Below, piece by piece: positions 3,204 to 14,490 of a DNA stretch of 25,031 bases. Within the stretch, counting starts at the first letter, position 1. Each line of letters opens with the position of its first letter. The DNA lies in IMG/VR virus record IMGVR_UViG_3300025000_000395, positions 1 to 25,031 of that record; one strand, written 5' to 3'. The notes under the pieces are model-generated. The model worked only from the letters and a program-made list of their open reading frames with translations, had not been told where the DNA came from and did no database searches. Both the position numbers and the translations under genes were made by a program. Source of the DNA: a virus.

Positions 3204-5345
3204 ATGGAATTATTCCGTTTGTTTGGATCCATATTAATTGACAATAAAGATGCAAATAATGAACTCGATAAAACCGATAAAAAAGGTGAAAGTTTAGGCC
3301 AAAAATTCGGGCATATCACAAAGACAGTTGCTATTATGGGCACAGCTATAGTCGGTGCCGGAGCAGTTGCTGGCGGAGCTCTCTTTGCTTTAGCTAATAA
3401 GGCCTCAAATTTATCCGAAGCGCAAAACGTTGTAAATGAAACATTTAAAACGTCAAAAGATTCAATATTAGCATGGGCAAAGACTCTTGCTGATTCAGCA
3501 GGAATTTCTGAAACTAACGCAACGAAATTTGTCGGAGCAATGGGCGCAATGCTTTTGTCTTCGGGTTTAACTGAAGACGCCGCTGCCGGTATGGCAAAAT
3601 CGATGGTTCAATTGGCTGGCGATATGTCATCGTTTTATAACCTCGACAATGAAACCGCATGGGAAAAGATAAGGGCGGGCATTTCGGGCGAAACCGAACC
3701 TCTAAAGCAATTAGGTATTAATATGTCGGTTGCCAATTTAGAGGCGTATGGCATGGCTAACGGCATGAATAAAGCTTATAAAGAAATGTCGCAAGCCGAG
3801 CAAACGCAATTACGCTACAACTATTTAATGGATGTAACGGCGAATGCGCAGGGCGACTTCGGGCGCACATTAGAGACATCATTTCCCAACCAACTGCGTG
3901 TTGCGAAACTAAACATTGAAAAACTAACAACGGCTATCGGGCAGCAATTCATCCCGGGCTTTTTAGATGCCTTTAAAAAAATAAACGAATATATGCCAGA
4001 GATTCAGGCGTTTATAAGTAACGCCTTTGAAAAAATTCAAGCAGTTATCGAACCAATATTACCCATAGTTATCGATTTAGTTAAAAAAGGGTTTAATGTT
4101 CTCAAAGAAGCGATCGAATTTATCTCTGATGCAATCAATGACGCGATAGATTTTTACACGAAATATAAAGACATCATTGACCCCATTGCTATCGCGGTAG
4201 GAGCCGCGGCTTTAGCGTTTAATATTTGGTCAGCAGCAGTCGGTATATGGACATTTGTAACGACGGTTGCTACACCTATCACTGTTGCTTTTGGCGCGGC
4301 TGTCGCGTTCCTCACATCACCTGTGTTCCTTGTTACGGCGGCTATCGGGATATTAATCGGAATTGTTTTCCTGTTGTGGAAACACTGGGATTCTATAGTA
4401 GCGTTTTTAAAAACCAGTTGGGACGCAGTAGTCAACGCATTCAATACGGCAATCAACGCTATAGGAGACTTTTTTAAAGGCCTATGGGAAGGGATAGTAA
4501 AAATATTTGCTCCTGTTGTCGAGTGGTTCGGCAATATTTTCAAAGGTGCATGGGAAGCGATAGTCAATATATTCTCGCCCATCGTTGAATGGTTCGGGCA
4601 ACTTTTCAAGGCTTTGCTTGCTATTATCTGGAAAGTTAACGAACCGATAATTAAATTCTTCGTAAAAGTATGGGACGGAATTGTTGGTATTTTTACTCCT
4701 ATAATCAAATGGTTCGGAGATATTTTTACTTCTGCTTGGGAAGGTGTAAAATCGGCATTTTCAGCAGTCGGTAAATTCTTCACTGATGTGTGGGATGGAA
4801 TTGTAAAAATATTTACTCCAATTGTTAACTGGTTTGGCGATCAATTTAAAAAAGCTTGGGAAAGCATCAAGGCTGTTTTCTCTGTTGTGAGCGATTTCTT
4901 TCAAGGGATATTTGACAAAGTTGTCGGCATTTTCTCGAAAGTCGGCTCGGCCATTGGAGACGCAGTAAGCGGCGCGTTTAAATGGGTAATTAACGGAGTC
5001 CTGGGCATTGTTGAAGGTGTAATCAACTCAATCATTAAAGGCATCAACAAAGTAACCGGATTTCTCACTAAAATATCCGGTGTTGATATAAATCAGATAC
5101 CTGAATTTAACATACCCAGACTTGAAAAAGGCGGCGACATCACACGATCAGGCCGCGTTCTCGTCGGTGAAGCAGGACCCGAGTTTCTTGACCTCCCTGA
5201 CGGAGCCAGAGTAACACCGCTTAACAAAGCAGGTGGAGCGACATTTAACTTTTACGACACTCGCGTCATGGGCCCCAATGATATTGATTATCTCATGGAA
5301 GCTATGACTAAGAGAGCAAGACAGTTAGGAGTGGTGCCCGCATGA
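3204..5345 (+). CDS. tail tape measure protein
   Basis: Encodes 713 residues, the longest gene here, immediately after the chaperone pair. Tape measure proteins set tail length and are expelled at DNA entry. The N-terminal part has a Gly/Ala-rich hydrophobic stretch (about 38-65) and a minor-tail core (ATKFVGAMGAMLLSSG; MVQLAGDMSSFYNLD; LKQLGINMS) typical of phage tail tape measure proteins. Long hydrophobic segments follow at about 330-395. Residues 430-580 hold repeats built on W(E/D)GIVKIFxPIVxWFG with units of 22 and 18 residues. The C-terminus has GGDITRSGRVLVGEAGPEF, a motif common at the ends of tape measure proteins. The last codons overlap the next ATG by four bases. At roughly 3 bases per angstrom-scale step this predicts a tail near 0.1 micrometre, an inference only. 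Confidence 0.92.
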   Translation: MELFRLFGSILIDNKDANNELDKTDKKGESLGQKFGHITKTVAIMGTAIVGAGAVAGGALFALANKASNLSEAQNVVNETFKTSKDSILAWAKTLADSAGISETNATKFVGAMGAMLLSSGLTEDAAAGMAKSMVQLAGDMSSFYNLDNETAWEKIRAGISGETEPLKQLGINMSVANLEAYGMANGMNKAYKEMSQAEQTQLRYNYLMDVTANAQGDFGRTLETSFPNQLRVAKLNIEKLTTAIGQQFIPGFLDAFKKINEYMPEIQAFISNAFEKIQAVIEPILPIVIDLVKKGFNVLKEAIEFISDAINDAIDFYTKYKDIIDPIAIAVGAAALAFNIWSAAVGIWTFVTTVATPITVAFGAAVAFLTSPVFLVTAAIGILIGIVFLLWKHWDSIVAFLKTSWDAVVNAFNTAINAIGDFFKGLWEGIVKIFAPVVEWFGNIFKGAWEAIVNIFSPIVEWFGQLFKALLAIIWKVNEPIIKFFVKVWDGIVGIFTPIIKWFGDIFTSAWEGVKSAFSAVGKFFTDVWDGIVKIFTPIVNWFGDQFKKAWESIKAVFSVVSDFFQGIFDKVVGIFSKVGSAIGDAVSGAFKWVINGVLGIVEGVINSIIKGINKVTGFLTKISGVDINQIPEFNIPRLEKGGDITRSGRVLVGEAGPEFLDLPDGARVTPLNKAGGATFNFYDTRVMGPNDIDYLMEAMTKRARQLGVVPA
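4480..4930 (+). repeat. degenerate Trp/Phe repeats in the tape measure gene
   Basis: The translated region contains at least five copies of a unit resembling W(E/D)GIVKIF(A/S/T)PIV(E/K/N)WFG, either 22 residues long or in a shortened 18-residue form (for example WEGVKSAFSAVGKFFTDV). The copies at about 4483, 4549, 4669 and 4789 are the most alike. The bases have drifted more than the residues, so these are old duplications kept by selection. Confidence 0.75.
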
Positions 5346-9825: not shown

Positions 9826-10446
9826 ATGATTAACTTTTTGGAACTTATCAAACCGGGCGCGCTAGAGGCGTGGAGAAAACACAATATCAGGTCAAGCGTC
9901 ACGATGGCACAAGCTATCATTGAGAGCGCATGGGGCGACTCAGCGCCGGGGAATAACCTATTCGGAATGAAATGGTATGACGGCTGCGGATATGATGTGC
10001 AATACCTCGACACGCAGGAGTATATTCAAGGGCAGTATGTCACCATGAAAGAGCCGTTCCGCAAATACAATTCATTCACCGACTCAATCTACGACCATAC
10101 TCAACTATTACTGATAGACAGATATATCCCTGTACGTCAGGCAGAGTCGTATCAAGAGGCGGCTAGGGCGCTCCAGACATGCGGATATGCAACTGACCCA
10201 GCATACGCTAATGCGCTGATCAGGATTATCGAGCAGTATGGATTAAATTATTATGATGGAGGGATGTTTAAAGTGTACGGAGATTATGAAAAAATCGCTG
10301 AATGGGCGAGAGCTGACGTTCAGGAGCTATATGAGCGTGGCATAATGAAAGGCGATGACAAGGGGAATTTTAACCCTAAAGAGCCGATTACCCGTGAACA
10401 GGCGGCATCCCTTATAATGAGGGCTCTCCGCTCAATAGGCAAATAA
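9826..10446 (+). CDS. endolysin: glucosaminidase with SLH domain
   Basis: Encodes 206 residues. Residues 1-140 are a GH73-type N-acetylglucosaminidase (FlgJ/LytG-like): SVTMAQAIIESAWGDS gives the catalytic glutamate (E33), followed by NNLFGMKWYDG, the FRKYNSFTDSIYDH aromatic region and the ALQTCGYATDPAYANAL block. It should cut the glycan strand of host peptidoglycan. Residues 155-203 (AEWARADVQELYERGIM, GDDKGNFNPKEPITREQAA) form a single S-layer-homology domain, which in hosts binds pyruvylated secondary cell-wall polymer. No signal peptide is present, so it depends on the upstream holin. AGGAGGG precedes the ATG. Confidence 0.92.
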   Translation: MINFLELIKPGALEAWRKHNIRSSVTMAQAIIESAWGDSAPGNNLFGMKWYDGCGYDVQYLDTQEYIQGQYVTMKEPFRKYNSFTDSIYDHTQLLLIDRYIPVRQAESYQEAARALQTCGYATDPAYANALIRIIEQYGLNYYDGGMFKVYGDYEKIAEWARADVQELYERGIMKGDDKGNFNPKEPITREQAASLIMRALRSIGK

Positions 10447-10525: not shown

Positions 10526-10549
10526 GGCTCCTTCGGGAGCCTCTTTTTT
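10526..10549 (+). terminator. intrinsic terminator at the end of the late genes
   Basis: GGCTCC (10526-10531), TTCG loop and GGAGCC (10536-10541) followed by TCTTTTTT. It ends late plus-strand transcription 80 bases after the endolysin. Its T tract overlaps the stop codon of the convergent minus-strand gene. The interval 10447-10525 shows no other clear feature. Confidence 0.85.
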
Positions 10550-11000
10550 ATGCCTCGAAAAATTTTATAATCGCCTTATCCATGATTCTGCTCATCGGCA
10601 CGCCAGTTTCGGACGAATATTTGCGGAGCTTGGCCATTAATTCCGAGTCAATCACCATATTCACGCGCTCGCGGGTAGTCAGGTCAGAGGGCGCGGCTTC
10701 TTCTTGCGCGCCGAATTCTGCCTCAACAGTTTCGGCAAATAAATGTTTCTCTGCCCATGCTTGCGCATCCTCTGCGGTCATCGGGTTAATTGTCTCGCCG
10801 CCGTGCGTCTCGTTGCCGATATGACGCGCATACTCGCTCATCGGGCCGCCGTAGCCGTGAAGGAAATACGCGCCTTTGGTGTTACGGTACAGTGCCTGAT
10901 AGCAGTGCGAAAAATCCCTGTTGCTCCGCTCGTTCGACCAATCGCCTATCAATTTCGATGTTTCCGTGTTGTACGTCCTGCCGTCAATAATTTTTCGCAT
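10548..11000 (-). CDS. ribbon-helix-helix protein with N-terminal phage domain
   Basis: Encodes 150 residues from the ATG at 11000, chosen because GGAG lies six bases before it; the upstream in-frame ATG at 11012 has no ribosome site. Residues 1-90 (KIIDGRTYNTETSKLIGDWS, LYRNTKGAYFLHGYGGPMS, then AEDAQAWAEKHL) form a domain I recall in many Bacillota phage and mobile-element proteins. Residues 110-150 (TTRERVNMVIDSELMAKLRK, GVPMSRIMDKAI) look like a ribbon-helix-helix DNA-binding unit. It is probably a small regulator and may control the upstream operator. The bases are distinctly richer in G+C than the neighbouring 101-aa gene, hinting at separate origin. Confidence 0.75.
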   Translation of the reverse strand: MRKIIDGRTYNTETSKLIGDWSNERSNRDFSHCYQALYRNTKGAYFLHGYGGPMSEYARHIGNETHGGETINPMTAEDAQAWAEKHLFAETVEAEFGAQEEAAPSDLTTRERVNMVIDSELMAKLRKYSSETGVPMSRIMDKAIIKFFEA

Positions 11001-11015
11001 GATGTTCTCCATTCT

Positions 11016-11045
11016 GCCGGGATTTACCGCCCGGCTCGGTTTTTT
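11016..11045 (+). terminator. hairpin with T tract between two minus-strand genes
   Basis: GCCGGG (11016-11021) pairs with CCCGGC (11030-11035) around an 8-base loop and is followed on the plus strand by TCGGTTTTTT. In that direction it looks like a second terminator against late read-through. On the minus strand it lies between the 101-aa gene and the RHH gene without a T tract, so it could affect mRNA processing instead. Confidence 0.5.
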
Positions 11046-11047
11046 GT

Positions 11048-11353
11048 TTATTCTGCGATTTCTTTAATTTTTTCGACAATTGTATTAAAATCATCGGAGC
11101 TGATATTTTTTGACTCGAATTTCTCTGTTGTAAAATCAAACCAAACTTTTGCGTAATATAAATTGCTAATCATTTTGCTTGCTGATGAGTTTGAAATTTT
11201 TTGGCCATTGAGTTCGGCGTATGAAATGCTTCCTGTGTTGTATTTTTCTACTACCAAGCCAAGCAATTTTGCTAAATCATTAAAATATATCCTATGGTTG
11301 TTTCCGTTAATCCATTCTTTTCCTATAGTGAGCATTTTTTCTGTGTTTAACAT
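11048..11353 (-). CDS. hypothetical phage accessory protein
   Basis: Encodes 101 residues with a strong AGGAGG before the ATG. The text MLTIGKEWINGNNHRIYFND, GSISYAELNGQKISNSSAS and the final helices resemble small proteins recalled from clostridial and Bacillus mobile elements, all without known function. It is AT-rich and is the first gene after the promoter at 11384-11412. It lies upstream of the RHH gene on the same strand, and the pair probably forms one transcript expressed in the lysogen. A toxin-antitoxin-like or regulator-plus-effector pair is possible but not shown. Confidence 0.65.
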   Translation of the reverse strand: MLNTEKMLTIGKEWINGNNHRIYFNDLAKLLGLVVEKYNTGSISYAELNGQKISNSSASKMISNLYYAKVWFDFTTEKFESKNISSDDFNTIVEKIKEIAE

Positions 11354-11383
11354 TGTCGTTGCCTCCTGTTATTTGATAATCTA

Positions 11384-11412
11384 AGTATACATCAGTTGAT
11401 GTATGGTGTCAA
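11384..11412 (-). promoter_or_regulatory. sigma-A promoter for the 101-aa/RHH operon
   Basis: Read on the minus strand: TTGACA (11412-11407), 17 bases, TATACT (11389-11384), then AGGAGG and the ATG at 11353. This is the best-matching promoter on the minus strand of the window. Confidence 0.85.
11387..11404. promoter_or_regulatory. palindromic operator between -35 and -10
   Basis: ATACATCAGTTGATGTAT is a perfect 8-2-8 inverted repeat filling the promoter spacer and entering the -10 box. Related half-sites (TACAT at 11413, ATGTA at 11421, TTGATGTA at 11443-11450) continue upstream, suggesting a cluster of operators for a dimeric repressor. The nearby RHH protein is the obvious candidate. Confidence 0.75.
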
Positions 11413-11483: not shown

Positions 11484-11504
11484 AAAAAGCCCTCCGAAGA
11501 GGGC
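11484..11504 (-). terminator. intrinsic terminator for the exonuclease gene
   Basis: On the minus strand GCCCTC, loop TTCG and GAGGGC are followed by TTTTTATTTG. It stops transcripts of the exonuclease gene before the next promoter. The bases 11505-11568 hold nothing else I can identify. Confidence 0.85.
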
Positions 11505-11568: not shown

Positions 11569-12390
11569 TTATGCTCGCGTTCGCCTTTCAATCCTTTTAG
11601 CTTCCTGATCGGCTTCTGCCAGTTTTAACAGCTCTATAAATATCATGCCTGTAATCCGAGCATCAGCATATGCTCTATGGTATCCACCTTGGTCTATGTT
11701 AAAATGTTTAGCGACATTGATGAGTTTATGACTGTTTAGATTTACGTACTTTCTAGAGCAATTTAAAGTACATACATAAGGGTTTAGAATACTCACACCT
11801 TGCCTATGTAAATTTGCCATCAGAAACGATAGGTCAAACGTGGCGTTATGCATAACGATTGGCAACTCTCCGATGAACTCGGTGAGTTTCGGCAGCATCT
11901 CTTCTATAGAAGGTGAATCAGCAACCATGTCGTTAGTTATTCCGTTGATTTTTGTTATAAATTCGGTTATTGGAACCTTTGGTTTTATAAGTTTTTCAAA
12001 AGAAGCAAACTCTTTTCCGTTAATGAACCTGACGGCCGCGAATTCGATTATTTCGCAATTGCTAGGGCTTAATCCTGTGGTTTCGATGTCAAATGCAATA
12101 AAGTCGTTGCATCGGGCTCTGCCTTTTATAGTGTTTATCCTTATCTGCTCAGTTTCCCCGATTATTTCATTATATTCATCGTCCATGTTTGAGCGCCGTG
12201 AGTAAACATGCTGTTGCTGAGACTCTTGCGGTTGGGTTTGCTCTTGGGACTTATCGGCTGTCTTAGCTTTGCCGATAAAATAAAACGCTAAAATAATTAT
12301 TGCAATCCCGACAAAAAGATTTGCGCTTAGTATCGCAATGCAAATCAATACAGCTGCTACAGCTCCGAGAATCGATAAGATTTTTTTCAC
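11569..12390 (-). CDS. membrane-anchored DEDDh 3'-5' exonuclease (DnaQ-like)
   Basis: Encodes 273 residues from a GTG at 12390 with GAGGTGA six bases upstream; an earlier GTG at 12399 falls inside that ribosome site. Residues 4-22 and 24-40 are two hydrophobic segments, probably a membrane hairpin or one long anchor, followed by a Gln-rich linker. The exonuclease domain spans about 95-260 with all three motifs: D101-I-E103-TTG, H181-N-A-T-F-D186 and H238-RAYA-D243. It should remove nucleotides from DNA or RNA 3' ends with two metal ions. Housekeeping DnaQ proteins and polymerase epsilon subunits lack such an anchor. The gene stands alone with its own promoter-like sequence and terminator, beside attP and opposite to the late genes, which is the pattern of a lysogen-expressed accessory gene. 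A role in blocking incoming DNA is a hypothesis. Confidence 0.88.
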   Translation of the reverse strand: MKKILSILGAVAAVLICIAILSANLFVGIAIIILAFYFIGKAKTADKSQEQTQPQESQQQHVYSRRSNMDDEYNEIIGETEQIRINTIKGRARCNDFIAFDIETTGLSPSNCEIIEFAAVRFINGKEFASFEKLIKPKVPITEFITKINGITNDMVADSPSIEEMLPKLTEFIGELPIVMHNATFDLSFLMANLHRQGVSILNPYVCTLNCSRKYVNLNSHKLINVAKHFNIDQGGYHRAYADARITGMIFIELLKLAEADQEAKRIERRTRA

Positions 12391-12444
12391 AACAATCACC
12401 TCATTAAATTATTTAATAGATTTTTAGCCTTGACGTTTATTGAA

Positions 12445-12473
12445 ATTGTAATACTAAATTTAACGATGTGCAA
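12445..12473 (-). promoter_or_regulatory. possible promoter of the exonuclease gene
   Basis: On the minus strand TTGCAC (12473-12468), 17 bases and TACAAT (12450-12445) lie about 55 bases before the GTG. The -35 box is weak, so this is tentative. Confidence 0.4.
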
Positions 12474-12511
12474 GTTAATTTTTATATTACTTTATTTCGG
12501 CGACTTTATTT

Positions 12512-12533
12512 TGTGCGTTATTTGTGCGTTATT
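12512..12533 (+). repeat. left arm-type repeats of attP (two TGTGCGTTATT)
   Basis: TGTGCGTTATT occurs at 12512-12522 and immediately again at 12523-12533. The same 11-mer occurs twice, in the same orientation, on the other side of the tRNA-derived core. Paired direct repeats flanking a core are the usual form of arm sites bound by the N-terminal domain of a tyrosine integrase. Confidence 0.7.
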
Positions 12534-12538
12534 ACATG

Positions 12539-12579
12539 AAAACAGCGACCTGCTAGCTTTACCTAGAAGTCGCTGTTTT
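12539..12579 (-). terminator. long hairpin terminator beside the tRNA fragment
   Basis: AAAACAGCGAC (12539-12549) and GTCGCTGTTTT (12569-12579) form a perfect 11-bp stem around a 19-base loop that has a smaller CTAG/CTAG pairing. Its A and T tracts let it work in both directions. On the minus strand it follows the tRNA fragment's CCA by two bases, so it can end the integrase transcript and, after integration, could serve the restored tRNA-Arg gene. Confidence 0.75.
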
Positions 12580-12581
12580 GC

Positions 12582-12631
12582 TGGTGTTCCCGAGACGACT
12601 CGAACGTCCGGCCAACGGATTAGAAATCCGT
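12582..12631 (-). other. attP core: 3' half of tRNA-Arg(UCU)
   Basis: Read on the minus strand: anticodon stem ACGGA, loop TTTCTAA (anticodon TCT), stem TCCGT; a five-base variable region; T arm GGACG-TTCGAGT-CGTCT; acceptor strand CGGGAAC; discriminator A and CCA. The bases beyond 12631 have no D arm or 5' acceptor strand, so the gene is only half present. Such 3'-half copies next to an integrase gene are attachment cores that restore the host tRNA on insertion. The presumed host target is a tRNA-Arg(UCU) gene with encoded CCA. Confidence 0.88.
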
Positions 12632-12677
12632 TGAATTACGTAGCGTAACGGTATTTGTAAAAATATCAAATGCTCAA

Positions 12678-13847
12678 TTACAGAGGCTTATTTAATCGCT
12701 TTATTTTTGCACTACGCAACGTGTTTAAATTTGTTTTAATAGCGTTATTGCCGCTACTAACGTTTTGTGCGTTATTTTGTGCGTTATTTGCCGCCGCTAA
12801 CTCTTCGTTGAAAATGTCTTTCATTCTATCGTCCATCGCTTTATTATCATTGCTTTGAAGATGCTGATATATCTTTTTTAGCACAACGACATCGTGTCCA
12901 AGTCTTTGAGCGGCGTATTGATCGGGTATTCCATTTCTATACATAACTGTCGCTTGATAGTGCCTTAAATTGTGAAACGTAATCTCAGGAGTTCCGAGCT
13001 TGTCCATAAGATTGGCCCATCTGCCGCTATAGCTATCTGGCCGCATATTAAATATCGGAGCTGATGACTTTTTATAATCGATTGGTCTTTTTGATTTTAA
13101 TAATTGAACCAAATATTCAGGCAAAACAACTCTTCGTATGCCTCTTTCGGATTTAGGTTTTTTATTTTTATATCCTTCTTCCGTAATACCTCTGCTTTTT
13201 ACTATATAAATAATTGAATTATTAAAATCAACATCCGCCCATGTTAAGGCGAATATTTCGCCTTCTCGCATTCCGGCATGCGCCGCCAACAAAAACGGCA
13301 ACTCGTCAAACGTGCCTTTGACACATCGGTGCAAAAGAGCGGCTTGCTCTTCTGTAGGGACACACGGTGTGTATTTTTCGACCTTGGGCGATTTAAGTTC
13401 TAACATCGGCGATTTTCTTTTTAGAGCTGTATAGAAAATATTAGATAAAACTCCAAAATATTTCCTGACCGAAGTAGACGAATGACTTGATAATTCTTTT
13501 GATAAATAATCTTTAACATGAAGATCGTTAATTTGAGATAATTTATATTTACCAAATACAGGCTTAAAATGCGTCTCGATATACATTTTATATGAAATAA
13601 AAGTAGAATCTTCTATTTCTGGTTTTTTCATTTCCAACCATTTATCGGCCCAAATATTAAACCTCATATTTGAAACATTGAGTAAGCTTTGGTTTTCCAC
13701 GTCTATTTCTATATCACGAGCCGCAGCGATACAGTCTTTTTCTCTCTGTCGCGTTATATACTCCCTTATCATCTTTCCATTTAAATCTCTGCCTTTATAT
13801 ATGCAAGCTTGAAATGTTCCGTTTTTTAATTTTCTAATATATGCCAT
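12678..13847 (-). CDS. int: tyrosine site-specific integrase
   Basis: Encodes 389 residues from the ATG at 13847 (AGGA upstream); the open frame extends further into the repressor gene but without a start signal. Residues 1-55 are an arm-binding domain (KLKNGTFQACIYKGRDLNGK), 63-150 the SAM-like core-binding domain and 165-330 the catalytic domain with R194 (AGMREGE), K232, H292/R295 (HNLRH), H318 (RLGHD) and the nucleophile Y327 (KKIYQHL). It inserts and excises the phage at the tRNA-Arg site. A tail of about 55 residues after the active tyrosine is Asn/Gln rich because the attP arm repeats lie inside it. It follows the repressor by 13 bases and probably shares its transcript. Confidence 0.95.
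   Translation of the reverse strand: MAYIRKLKNGTFQACIYKGRDLNGKMIREYITRQREKDCIAAARDIEIDVENQSLLNVSNMRFNIWADKWLEMKKPEIEDSTFISYKMYIETHFKPVFGKYKLSQINDLHVKDYLSKELSSHSSTSVRKYFGVLSNIFYTALKRKSPMLELKSPKVEKYTPCVPTEEQAALLHRCVKGTFDELPFLLAAHAGMREGEIFALTWADVDFNNSIIYIVKSRGITEEGYKNKKPKSERGIRRVVLPEYLVQLLKSKRPIDYKKSSAPIFNMRPDSYSGRWANLMDKLGTPEITFHNLRHYQATVMYRNGIPDQYAAQRLGHDVVVLKKIYQHLQSNDNKAMDDRMKDIFNEELAAANNAQNNAQNVSSGNNAIKTNLNTLRSAKIKRLNKPL
12766..12788 (+). repeat. right arm-type repeats of attP inside the integrase gene
   Basis: TGTGCGTTATT occurs at 12766-12776 and 12778-12788, matching the left pair. A degenerate copy (GCGTTATT) is at 12743-12750. On the coding strand these produce the NNAQNNAQN stretch near the integrase C-terminus. 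Confidence 0.7.
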
Positions 13848-13860
13848 GGCTATGTATCCT

Positions 13861-14490
13861 CTATATATTTGATTTAAACGATTTAACTTTGCCAAGTATT
13901 TTAATATTTTTAAAATCTTTTTTGCCATAAACTTTATCGGGGTAAATAGGGTTTTCGGCTCTTAGAATGATACAATCATCAACTTTATATATTCTTTTGA
14001 TAGTCGCTTCGTCATCAATCATACATAAAGCAATTTCGCCATTTTCGACATCGGGCTGGCTTCTAATATATACAGTGTCGCCATCGTGAATCCTAGCGTT
14101 AATCATGCTATCTCCCTTTACTTTAAGGCAAAAATCAACATCGTCTGACGAATCAACCGTTTCATAACTTTCAATGTTTTCTTCTGCTGAAATTGGCTTG
14201 CCTGCGGCCACTCTTCCTAATACCGGAATTTTTTTATATTTTAACTTACGATCTTCCGAGTATTTCGGGGCATCCATCCCCATCAACCATACAGGATTTA
14301 CTTTAAAATAATGCGCCAACAACTTTATACCTGTTTGTCGAGCGTTGATTTCGGCCCTTTCGTATCTAGATATTGTGGCGCCGCTTAAACCAACTTCTTC
14401 ACCTAATTGCCTTACGTTTAAATCGTTTTCATCCCTGCATTCTTTTAACCTTTTTGCAAATATTTGCAATAATTCGGGGTTTGCTACCAT
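13861..14490 (-). CDS. CI/LexA-like phage repressor with S24 domain
   Basis: Encodes 209 residues with AAGGAG ten bases before the ATG. Residues 8-65 are an XRE-type helix-turn-helix (VRQLGEEVGLSGATISRYER). Residues 88-205 are an S24 peptidase/LexA-fold domain with a cleavage site at A96-G97 (RVAAGKP), S128 (KGDSM) and K165 (ATIKR) as the catalytic pair. It should hold the prophage silent by binding operators in the divergent region and lose activity by RecA-stimulated self-cleavage after DNA damage, making the phage inducible. It is read leftward with the integrase. Confidence 0.93.
   Translation of the reverse strand: MVANPELLQIFAKRLKECRDENDLNVRQLGEEVGLSGATISRYERAEINARQTGIKLLAHYFKVNPVWLMGMDAPKYSEDRKLKYKKIPVLGRVAAGKPISAEENIESYETVDSSDDVDFCLKVKGDSMINARIHDGDTVYIRSQPDVENGEIALCMIDDEATIKRIYKVDDCIILRAENPIYPDKVYGKKDFKNIKILGKVKSFKSNI

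What the first reader, a model, noticed from the sequence alone, without database searches (positions are those of the whole stretch)
11569..12390. Membrane-anchored DEDDh exonuclease beside attP
A complete DnaQ-type active site follows two N-terminal hydrophobic segments and a Gln-rich linker, in a stand-alone gene with its own terminator and promoter-like sequence, transcribed opposite to the late genes. This is the location and orientation of lysogenic conversion genes. An exonuclease fixed at the membrane would meet DNA entering the cell, suggesting superinfection exclusion or defence against other phages or plasmids. It could also serve nucleotide salvage or small-RNA decay.
Basis: inference. 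Interest (0 to 1): 0.66.

Follow-up and report, generated by a model that had tools for sequence, protein, structure and literature searches.

The report
Prophage membrane-anchored DNA-trimming exonuclease
A temperate phage carries, right beside its integration site, an enzyme that probably chews DNA from an end and is tethered to the cell membrane; the same design recurs among the lysogeny genes of unrelated prophages, which suggests that prophages use it to guard their host against DNA coming in from outside.

Summary
Window 11569-12390 (-) encodes a 273-aa protein: about 38 hydrophobic residues at the N terminus, a Gln-rich disordered linker, and an intact PolC-type DEDDh exonuclease domain (D101, E103, D186, H238, D243). 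It has its own ribosome-binding site and terminator. It lies beside a real attP, made of a tRNA 3'-end core and four perfect integrase-arm repeats, and is transcribed opposite to the late genes.

New here: the arrangement recurs. In a profile search blind to gene neighbours, all 5 membrane-anchored exonucleases lie beside a phage repressor gene, against 0 of 13 without an anchor (p about 1e-4). In staphylococcal-type prophages, a Clostridia prophage and others the order is repressor - (ImmA) - TM-exonuclease - integrase, with tyrosine or serine integrases. The anchor varies: N-terminal TMs or C-terminal TM/TM2. Exonuclease dN/dS is about 0.1 in the staphylococcal-type group.

Best reading: a prophage-expressed, membrane-tethered 3'-5' exonuclease that trims incoming DNA, working like SNIPE (a membrane-bound GIY-YIG nuclease) but with an unrelated nuclease. 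Expression, location, substrate and exclusion phenotype are inferred, not shown. In this phage the gene lies outside the repressor-integrase operon, and soluble lysogeny-module relatives exist.

The parts
11569..12390 (-). CDS of the membrane-anchored DEDDh exonuclease (273 aa, GTG start)
12399..12402 (-). ribosome-binding site GAGG, 8 nt before the GTG
   Evidence: read from the sequence
12268..12381 (-). hydrophobic N-terminal segment(s), residues 4-41
   Evidence: hydropathy; long helix 2-44 in the AF2 model
12112..12255 (-). Gln-rich linker, residues about 46-93, mostly disordered
   Evidence: pLDDT under 50 at 46-78 and 86-93
11617..12105 (-). DEDDh exonuclease domain, residues about 96-258
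12082..12090 (-). catalytic D101 and E103 (DIE motif)
   Evidence: sequence; alignment
11833..11835 (-). catalytic D186 codon
   Evidence: alignment
11662..11679 (-). catalytic H238 and D243 (HRAYAD)
   Evidence: alignment
12445..12472 (-). weak promoter-like site (TGCACA-16-TACAAT, 9/12)
   Evidence: not above chance
11489..11504 (-). intrinsic terminator downstream of the gene
12539..12579 (.). strong hairpin with flanking A/T runs (terminator-like in both directions) between the att core and the exonuclease gene
   Evidence: dG -24.8, z -5.2
12591..12640 (-). attP core: 3' part of a tRNA, probably tRNA-Arg(TCT)
   Evidence: Rfam tRNA partial match; anticodon read by eye
12510..12533 (+). 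two integrase arm-type repeats TTTGTGCGTTATT
12764..12788 (+). two integrase arm-type repeats TTTGTGCGTTATT
12678..13928 (-). tyrosine integrase
13861..14490 (-). CI/LexA-like repressor (HTH + peptidase S24)

Best explanation
The gene encodes an active DEDDh 3'-5' exonuclease tethered by its N terminus to the cytoplasmic face of the membrane. It is made from the prophage and trims free 3' ends of DNA that enters at the membrane (phage DNA at injection, or other incoming DNA), so it works as a superinfection-exclusion or defence gene of the lysogen. Shown by sequence: fold, intact active site, hydrophobic anchor, flexible linker, position at attP, own terminator, recurrence of the design in lysogeny modules, and purifying selection on the exonuclease domain in the staphylococcal-type relatives. 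Inferred: activity on DNA, cytoplasmic orientation (Lys residues flank the hydrophobic stretch), expression in the lysogen, and the exclusion effect. Tethering would also keep the nuclease away from host 3' ends, as shown for SNIPE, whose version without the TM is toxic (PMC13190303).
For: Domain and active site. Structure: the exonuclease part of the AF2 model has pLDDT mostly above 90 and matches the PolC exonuclease (9qpc, Z 23.4), the S. aureus DinG exonuclease (9ii8, Z 23.3), Cap18 (7t2s, Z 18.3) and TREX1 (7tqn, Z 17.4). SaDinG degrades ssDNA 3'-5' to mononucleotides (PMC12345164). Context in the window. Recurrence: L024 HTH-ImmA-TMexo-serine integrase; L025 HTH-TMexo-tyrosine integrase; Staphylococcus phage O1-69 CI-TMexo-integrase with 16 bp or less between CI and exonuclease; L047 Clostridia S24 repressor-TMexo-BRCT-integrase; L029 HTH-exo with C-terminal TM-ImmA-integrase; Streptococcus satellite Javan739 exo+TM2 beside its integrase; L084-L098. 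Context test on the neighbourhood-blind set: 5/5 anchored against 0/13 unanchored have a repressor gene nearby, p=1.2e-4. dN/dS of the exonuclease domain 0.06-0.20 in nearly all pairs, linker mostly 0.2-1. Precedents: SNIPE; membrane Sie proteins between integrase and repressor (PMC7693887).
Against: No expression, location or activity data. In this phage the gene is not in the repressor-integrase unit; a strong hairpin and attP separate them, and its promoter match is no better than chance. Soluble DEDDh genes also occupy lysogeny modules, so the anchor is not required for that location. L003, otherwise similar, reads DVK instead of DxE. PolC-type exonucleases prefer single strands or frayed ends (own knowledge), so an intact injected duplex may be a poor substrate without a partner. 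No DUF4041-like DNA- or tape-measure-binding domain was found.
Confidence: 0.5

Rival explanations
1. Lysogeny stabiliser: the exonuclease removes ssDNA 3' ends (imported or damage-derived) that would load RecA or activate ImmA, so it dampens prophage induction or protects the prophage from removal by transformation ('chromosomal curing').
For: It often lies in one gene string with CI or ImmA. A C1-regulated pneumococcal prophage is activated by RecA-DNA filaments formed on imported DNA, and pneumococcal prophages are in an arms race with transformation (PMC12637031). The related DinG exonuclease digests ssDNA 3'-5'. Transforming DNA is held to enter Gram-positive cells 3' end first (own knowledge).
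Against: No data tie it to induction; host competence is unknown; damage-derived ssDNA in the nucleoid would not need a membrane enzyme.
Confidence: 0.2
2. Counter-defence or nucleotide/RNA turnover at the membrane: it degrades defence-related nucleic acids, small RNAs or nucleotides for the phage.
For: DEDDh enzymes include RNases and dinucleases; Cap18 of E. coli (CBASS-associated, own knowledge) is a structural match.
Against: Nearest relatives are the DNA exonucleases of PolC and DinG; the marks of diDNases are absent (DEDDh not DEDDy, HNATFD not HHAxFD); early-gene placement would be expected for a lytic counter-defence gene.
Confidence: 0.12
3. Helper of integration or excision or of prophage replication, kept beside int because it acts with it.
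For: Adjacent to integrase in nearly all cases.
Against: It pairs with unrelated tyrosine and serine integrases, which need no exonuclease (own knowledge); a membrane anchor does not fit.
Confidence: 0.06
4. A drifting or passenger gene without benefit to the phage.
For: L003 has lost the DxE Glu and L105 holds only a remnant.
Against: Catalytic residues intact in the other anchored relatives aligned and exonuclease dN/dS about 0.1.
Confidence: 0.07

Closest known systems
SNIPE / PD-Lambda-1 (membrane-bound GIY-YIG nuclease, PMC13190303)
   Same: N-terminal membrane anchor, further region, cytoplasmic nuclease at the C terminus; single gene; proposed action on entering DNA.
   Different: DEDDh exonuclease instead of GIY-YIG; no DUF4041 detected; carried in phage lysogeny modules; no activity shown.
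Membrane superinfection-exclusion proteins of lysogeny modules (Sie2009, PMC7693887)
   Same: Membrane-associated product encoded in or beside the repressor-integrase module of a temperate Bacillota phage.
PolC exonuclease domain / DinG N-terminal exonuclease (2p1j, 9qpc, 9ii8)
   Same: Closest sequence and fold; same catalytic pentad.
   Different: Stand-alone, no polymerase or helicase; membrane anchor and linker instead.
TREX1 (membrane-tethered DEDDh exonuclease of animals)
   Same: DEDDh DNA exonuclease domain plus a membrane anchor.
   Different: TREX1 has a C-terminal anchor (own knowledge); only about 18% identity in the structural alignment; no common descent of the design implied.
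PDC-S48 (PADLOC candidate) and lysogeny-module exonucleases of Streptococcus phages
   Same: Same exonuclease domain; the Streptococcus genes lie between a metalloprotease/repressor and the integrase.
   Different: The PDC-S48 match covers the exonuclease domain only; the Streptococcus phage protein examined lacks a TM.
diDNases (PMC11706625)
   Same: DEDD nuclease in mobile elements of Gram-positive bacteria.
   Different: DEDDy, about 200 aa, HHAxFD motif; not met here.

Membership tests
DEDDh / RNase_T exonuclease superfamily | DnaQ fold with D-x-E, N-x3-D and H-x4-D motifs | tested here: met
   PF00929 E=5e-32; residues 101, 103, 186, 238, 243; fold
PolC-type DNA polymerase III | polymerase and PHP domains beside the exonuclease | tested here: not met
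   273 aa; only positions 404-591 of the 1445-position PolC model match
SNIPE | GIY-YIG nuclease domain | tested here: not met
   Pfam finds the RNase_T exonuclease and related DnaQ-like models instead
SNIPE | DUF4041 domain | tested here: not met
   no Pfam match in the window protein or in ten anchored or related proteins; L084 has a weak PD-Lambda-1 match (1.2e-5), probably coiled coil
SNIPE | N-terminal membrane anchor with cytoplasmic nuclease | tested here: inconclusive
   hydropathy supports an anchor, charges suggest a cytoplasmic C terminus; topology not measured
SNIPE | cleaves phage DNA during injection | not testable with these tools
   needs infection assays
Lysogeny-module superinfection-exclusion genes | membrane-associated product encoded in or next to the repressor/integrase region | tested here: met
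   282 bp from int across attP, anchor by prediction only; relatives lie between repressor and int
Lysogeny-module superinfection-exclusion genes | expressed in the lysogen and excludes phages | not testable with these tools
   no expression or phage data
diDNase | DEDDy with HHAxFD(L/I)xxF | tested here: not met
   window has HNATFDLSF and a His (DEDDh)
PDC-S48 | match over the whole 411- or 512-position profile | tested here: inconclusive
   window matches positions 5-178 of 411 only
tRNA-targeted temperate phage attP | tRNA 3' end as core plus flanking arm repeats and an adjacent integrase | tested here: met

The most novel reading that the evidence does not exclude
Temperate phages and satellites of Bacillota have repeatedly fused a DEDDh 3'-5' exonuclease to unrelated membrane anchors to make a checkpoint for incoming DNA at the inner membrane. 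It would degrade phage or transforming ssDNA from its 3' end, so that the prophage excludes rivals and also avoids induction and curing by imported DNA. This would be a prophage-borne, exonuclease-based counterpart of SNIPE.
Probability: 0.2. Interest if true: 0.82.

Novelty: new variant of a known kind. Interest (0 to 1): 0.6.

Why it matters
Membrane-bound nucleases that meet DNA at entry are a newly shown defence principle (SNIPE). A second, unrelated nuclease fold with a similar overall design, carried by prophages next to their repressor and integrase, would show that the principle evolved more than once and is used by phages themselves. It gives a defined, easily cloned gene with a clean active-site control for testing superinfection exclusion, prophage induction and the conflict between prophages and DNA uptake.

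Tried and rejected
Host identification through the tRNA sequence: no match in 398 genomes of one Clostridia-containing phylum sample, and in viral contigs only the near-identical contig; the nearest terminase, from Caldibacillus phage CBP1 (53.6%), points only to a Bacillota host. A genome-wide protein search mostly returned host PolC and DinG-sized proteins. Closer homologues of the window protein with the anchor: none beyond the near-identical contig L002. In 50,697 phage records only Staphylococcus phage O1-69 came up with an N-terminally anchored full-length form among the hits inspected; the other hits looked at were PolC or lacked an N-terminal TM. Scans with the L024 and L047 proteins gave nothing new, and L096 returned mostly the same contigs. 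The promoter-like site was rejected as evidence. Membership in SNIPE, diDNase and PolC was tested and not met. Read-through from the restored tRNA gene into the exonuclease gene after integration was considered; the hairpin at 12539-12579 makes it unlikely. No paper naming PDC-S48 was found.

Full report
What is there. The window is a virus record of 25031 bases; a second contig, 99.98% identical over the 12.8 kb compared, extends it upstream to the capsid, portal and terminase genes. The terminase is nearest to phages of Bacillota, 53.6% to Caldibacillus phage CBP1. On the minus strand run a CI/LexA-like repressor (14490-13861), a tyrosine integrase (13928-12678), attP, and the gene in question (12390-11569). 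The late genes and the lysin (9826-10446, glucosaminidase plus SLH) run on the plus strand and converge on it.

The protein. The start is GTG at 12390 behind GAGG with 8 nt spacing. Residues 4-41 are strongly hydrophobic (hydropathy 2.83 and 2.03). Residues 46-93 form a Gln-rich linker that is mostly disordered in the AF2 model. Residues 96-258 are a DEDDh exonuclease (PF00929 E=5e-32), closest in sequence to PolC exonuclease domains (2p1j E=4e-27) and in structure to PolC (Z 23.4) and S. aureus DinG (Z 23.3), with Cap18 (18.3) and TREX1 (17.4) lower. D101, E103, D186, H238 and D243 are all present. AF2 draws one long N-terminal helix (2-44), so whether the anchor is a hairpin or a single segment is open. 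Lysines flank the hydrophobic stretch on both sides. In the relatives L084-L090 the loop between two segments carries negative charge and the C-terminal flank positive charge, which suggests that the exonuclease faces the cytoplasm (inference).

attP. The core 12591-12640 (-) is the 3' part of a tRNA, by its anticodon Arg(TCT) (for the tRNA match; anticodon read by eye). Four perfect copies of TTTGTGCGTTATT flank it, two on each side; for the 12-base core of this repeat 0.21 matches are expected in the whole window. These are the expected arm-type integrase sites. Between core and gene lies a strong hairpin with A/T runs (12539-12579, dG -24.8, z -5.2). By the usual logic of integration, the gene would end up just downstream of the restored tRNA gene, insulated from it by this hairpin, and at the opposite prophage end from int.

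Relatives. A profile search of 2.9 million viral contigs was blind to gene neighbourhood. Of 18 non-redundant loci, 5 encode proteins with predicted membrane segments (window/L002, L003, L024, L025, L029) and 13 do not. All 5 have an HTH repressor gene within 1.5 kb and 4 have an integrase within 1.1 kb (L003 is cut by the contig end). None of the 13 has either in the loci held (p=1.2e-4 and 1.6e-3). The detection models were built here from a few members, including four of these five, so remote repressors or integrases near the other 13 could be missed and the p-values lean in favour. The contexts are: L024, HTH-ImmA-TMexo-serine integrase; L025, HTH-TMexo-tyrosine integrase; L029, which was not used to build the models, HTH-exo with C-terminal TM-ImmA-integrase. 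Staphylococcus phage O1-69 has CI-TMexo-integrase with about 15 bp between the first two. A Clostridia genome has S24 repressor-TMexo-BRCT-integrase. A group of contigs found with the O1-69 protein (L083-L098; related to each other and chosen by similarity, so not independent) repeats CI or HTH-ImmA, TMexo, then either a tyrosine or a serine integrase. A Streptococcus satellite carries the exonuclease fused to a C-terminal TM2 domain beside its integrase. The membrane anchor therefore occurs in several forms.

Limits of the pattern. Soluble relatives also sit in lysogeny modules: Streptococcus phages phiARI0923 and Javan310 (exonuclease near repressor/metalloprotease and integrase; a BRCT-like C terminus in the phiARI0923 protein was read by eye), and L099-L104, which begin with an amphipathic-looking MGILQRLFGKK. 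Membrane tethering is thus common but not obligatory. L003 has DVK instead of DxE (AAA codon) and L105 only a remnant. Across the staphylococcal-type group the exonuclease domain has dN/dS of 0.06-0.20 in nearly all pairs, the linker mostly 0.2-1, so enzyme activity is probably maintained there.

How it most likely works. The design (anchor, linker, nuclease in the cytoplasm) resembles SNIPE, a membrane-bound GIY-YIG nuclease shown to cut phage DNA during injection and toxic when its TM is removed (PMC13190303). Its place matches membrane Sie proteins encoded between integrase and repressor (PMC7693887). SaDinG, whose exonuclease domain is close in structure, degrades ssDNA 3'-5' (PMC12345164). 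I therefore favour an exclusion or defence role on entering DNA, at about 0.5. The main rival is a role in the conflict between prophage and imported ssDNA or RecA signals (PMC12637031). It is not a SNIPE (no GIY-YIG, no DUF4041), not a diDNase (DEDDh, not DEDDy) and not a PolC.

Verdict. Novelty: a new variant of a known kind (membrane-tethered nuclease against incoming DNA; lysogeny-module exclusion gene).

Noticed in passing
window 10548-11412 (-): Two-gene unit (unknown 101-aa ORF and a ribbon-helix-helix protein) behind a strong promoter match (TTGACA-17-TATACT) overlapped by the palindrome TACATCAACTGATGTA (by eye), possibly an autoregulated operator.
   Followed up: partly
L025 8947-9450: A relative by eye of the window's RHH protein (10548-11012) lies a few genes from the TM-exonuclease and integrase of another phage.
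   Followed up: no
L003 4066-6520: Reverse transcriptase gene beside a C-type-lectin-like ORF (both by eye), possibly a diversity-generating retroelement, in the phage contig that carries the DVK exonuclease.
   Followed up: no
L003 727-1758: The exonuclease has Lys (AAA) in place of the catalytic Glu of DxE while the other motifs are kept: inactivation, new role or sequencing error.
   Followed up: partly
L082 3989-4915: Streptococcus satellite phage exonuclease with a C-terminal TM2 membrane domain, annotated as DinG helicase.
   Followed up: partly
L047 1138-2583: TM - coiled coil - DEDDh - BRCT-like protein between repressor and integrase in a Clostridia genome, four parts in one gene.
   Followed up: partly
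L105 about 4001-4153: Only a fragment of the exonuclease (90% identical over 51 residues) remains between ImmA and integrase, a decayed or replaced copy.
   Followed up: no
window 9826-10446: Endolysin with glucosaminidase and one S-layer-homology repeat; L003's lysin also ends in an SLH-like stretch (by eye), suggesting hosts with SLH-binding cell walls.
   Followed up: no
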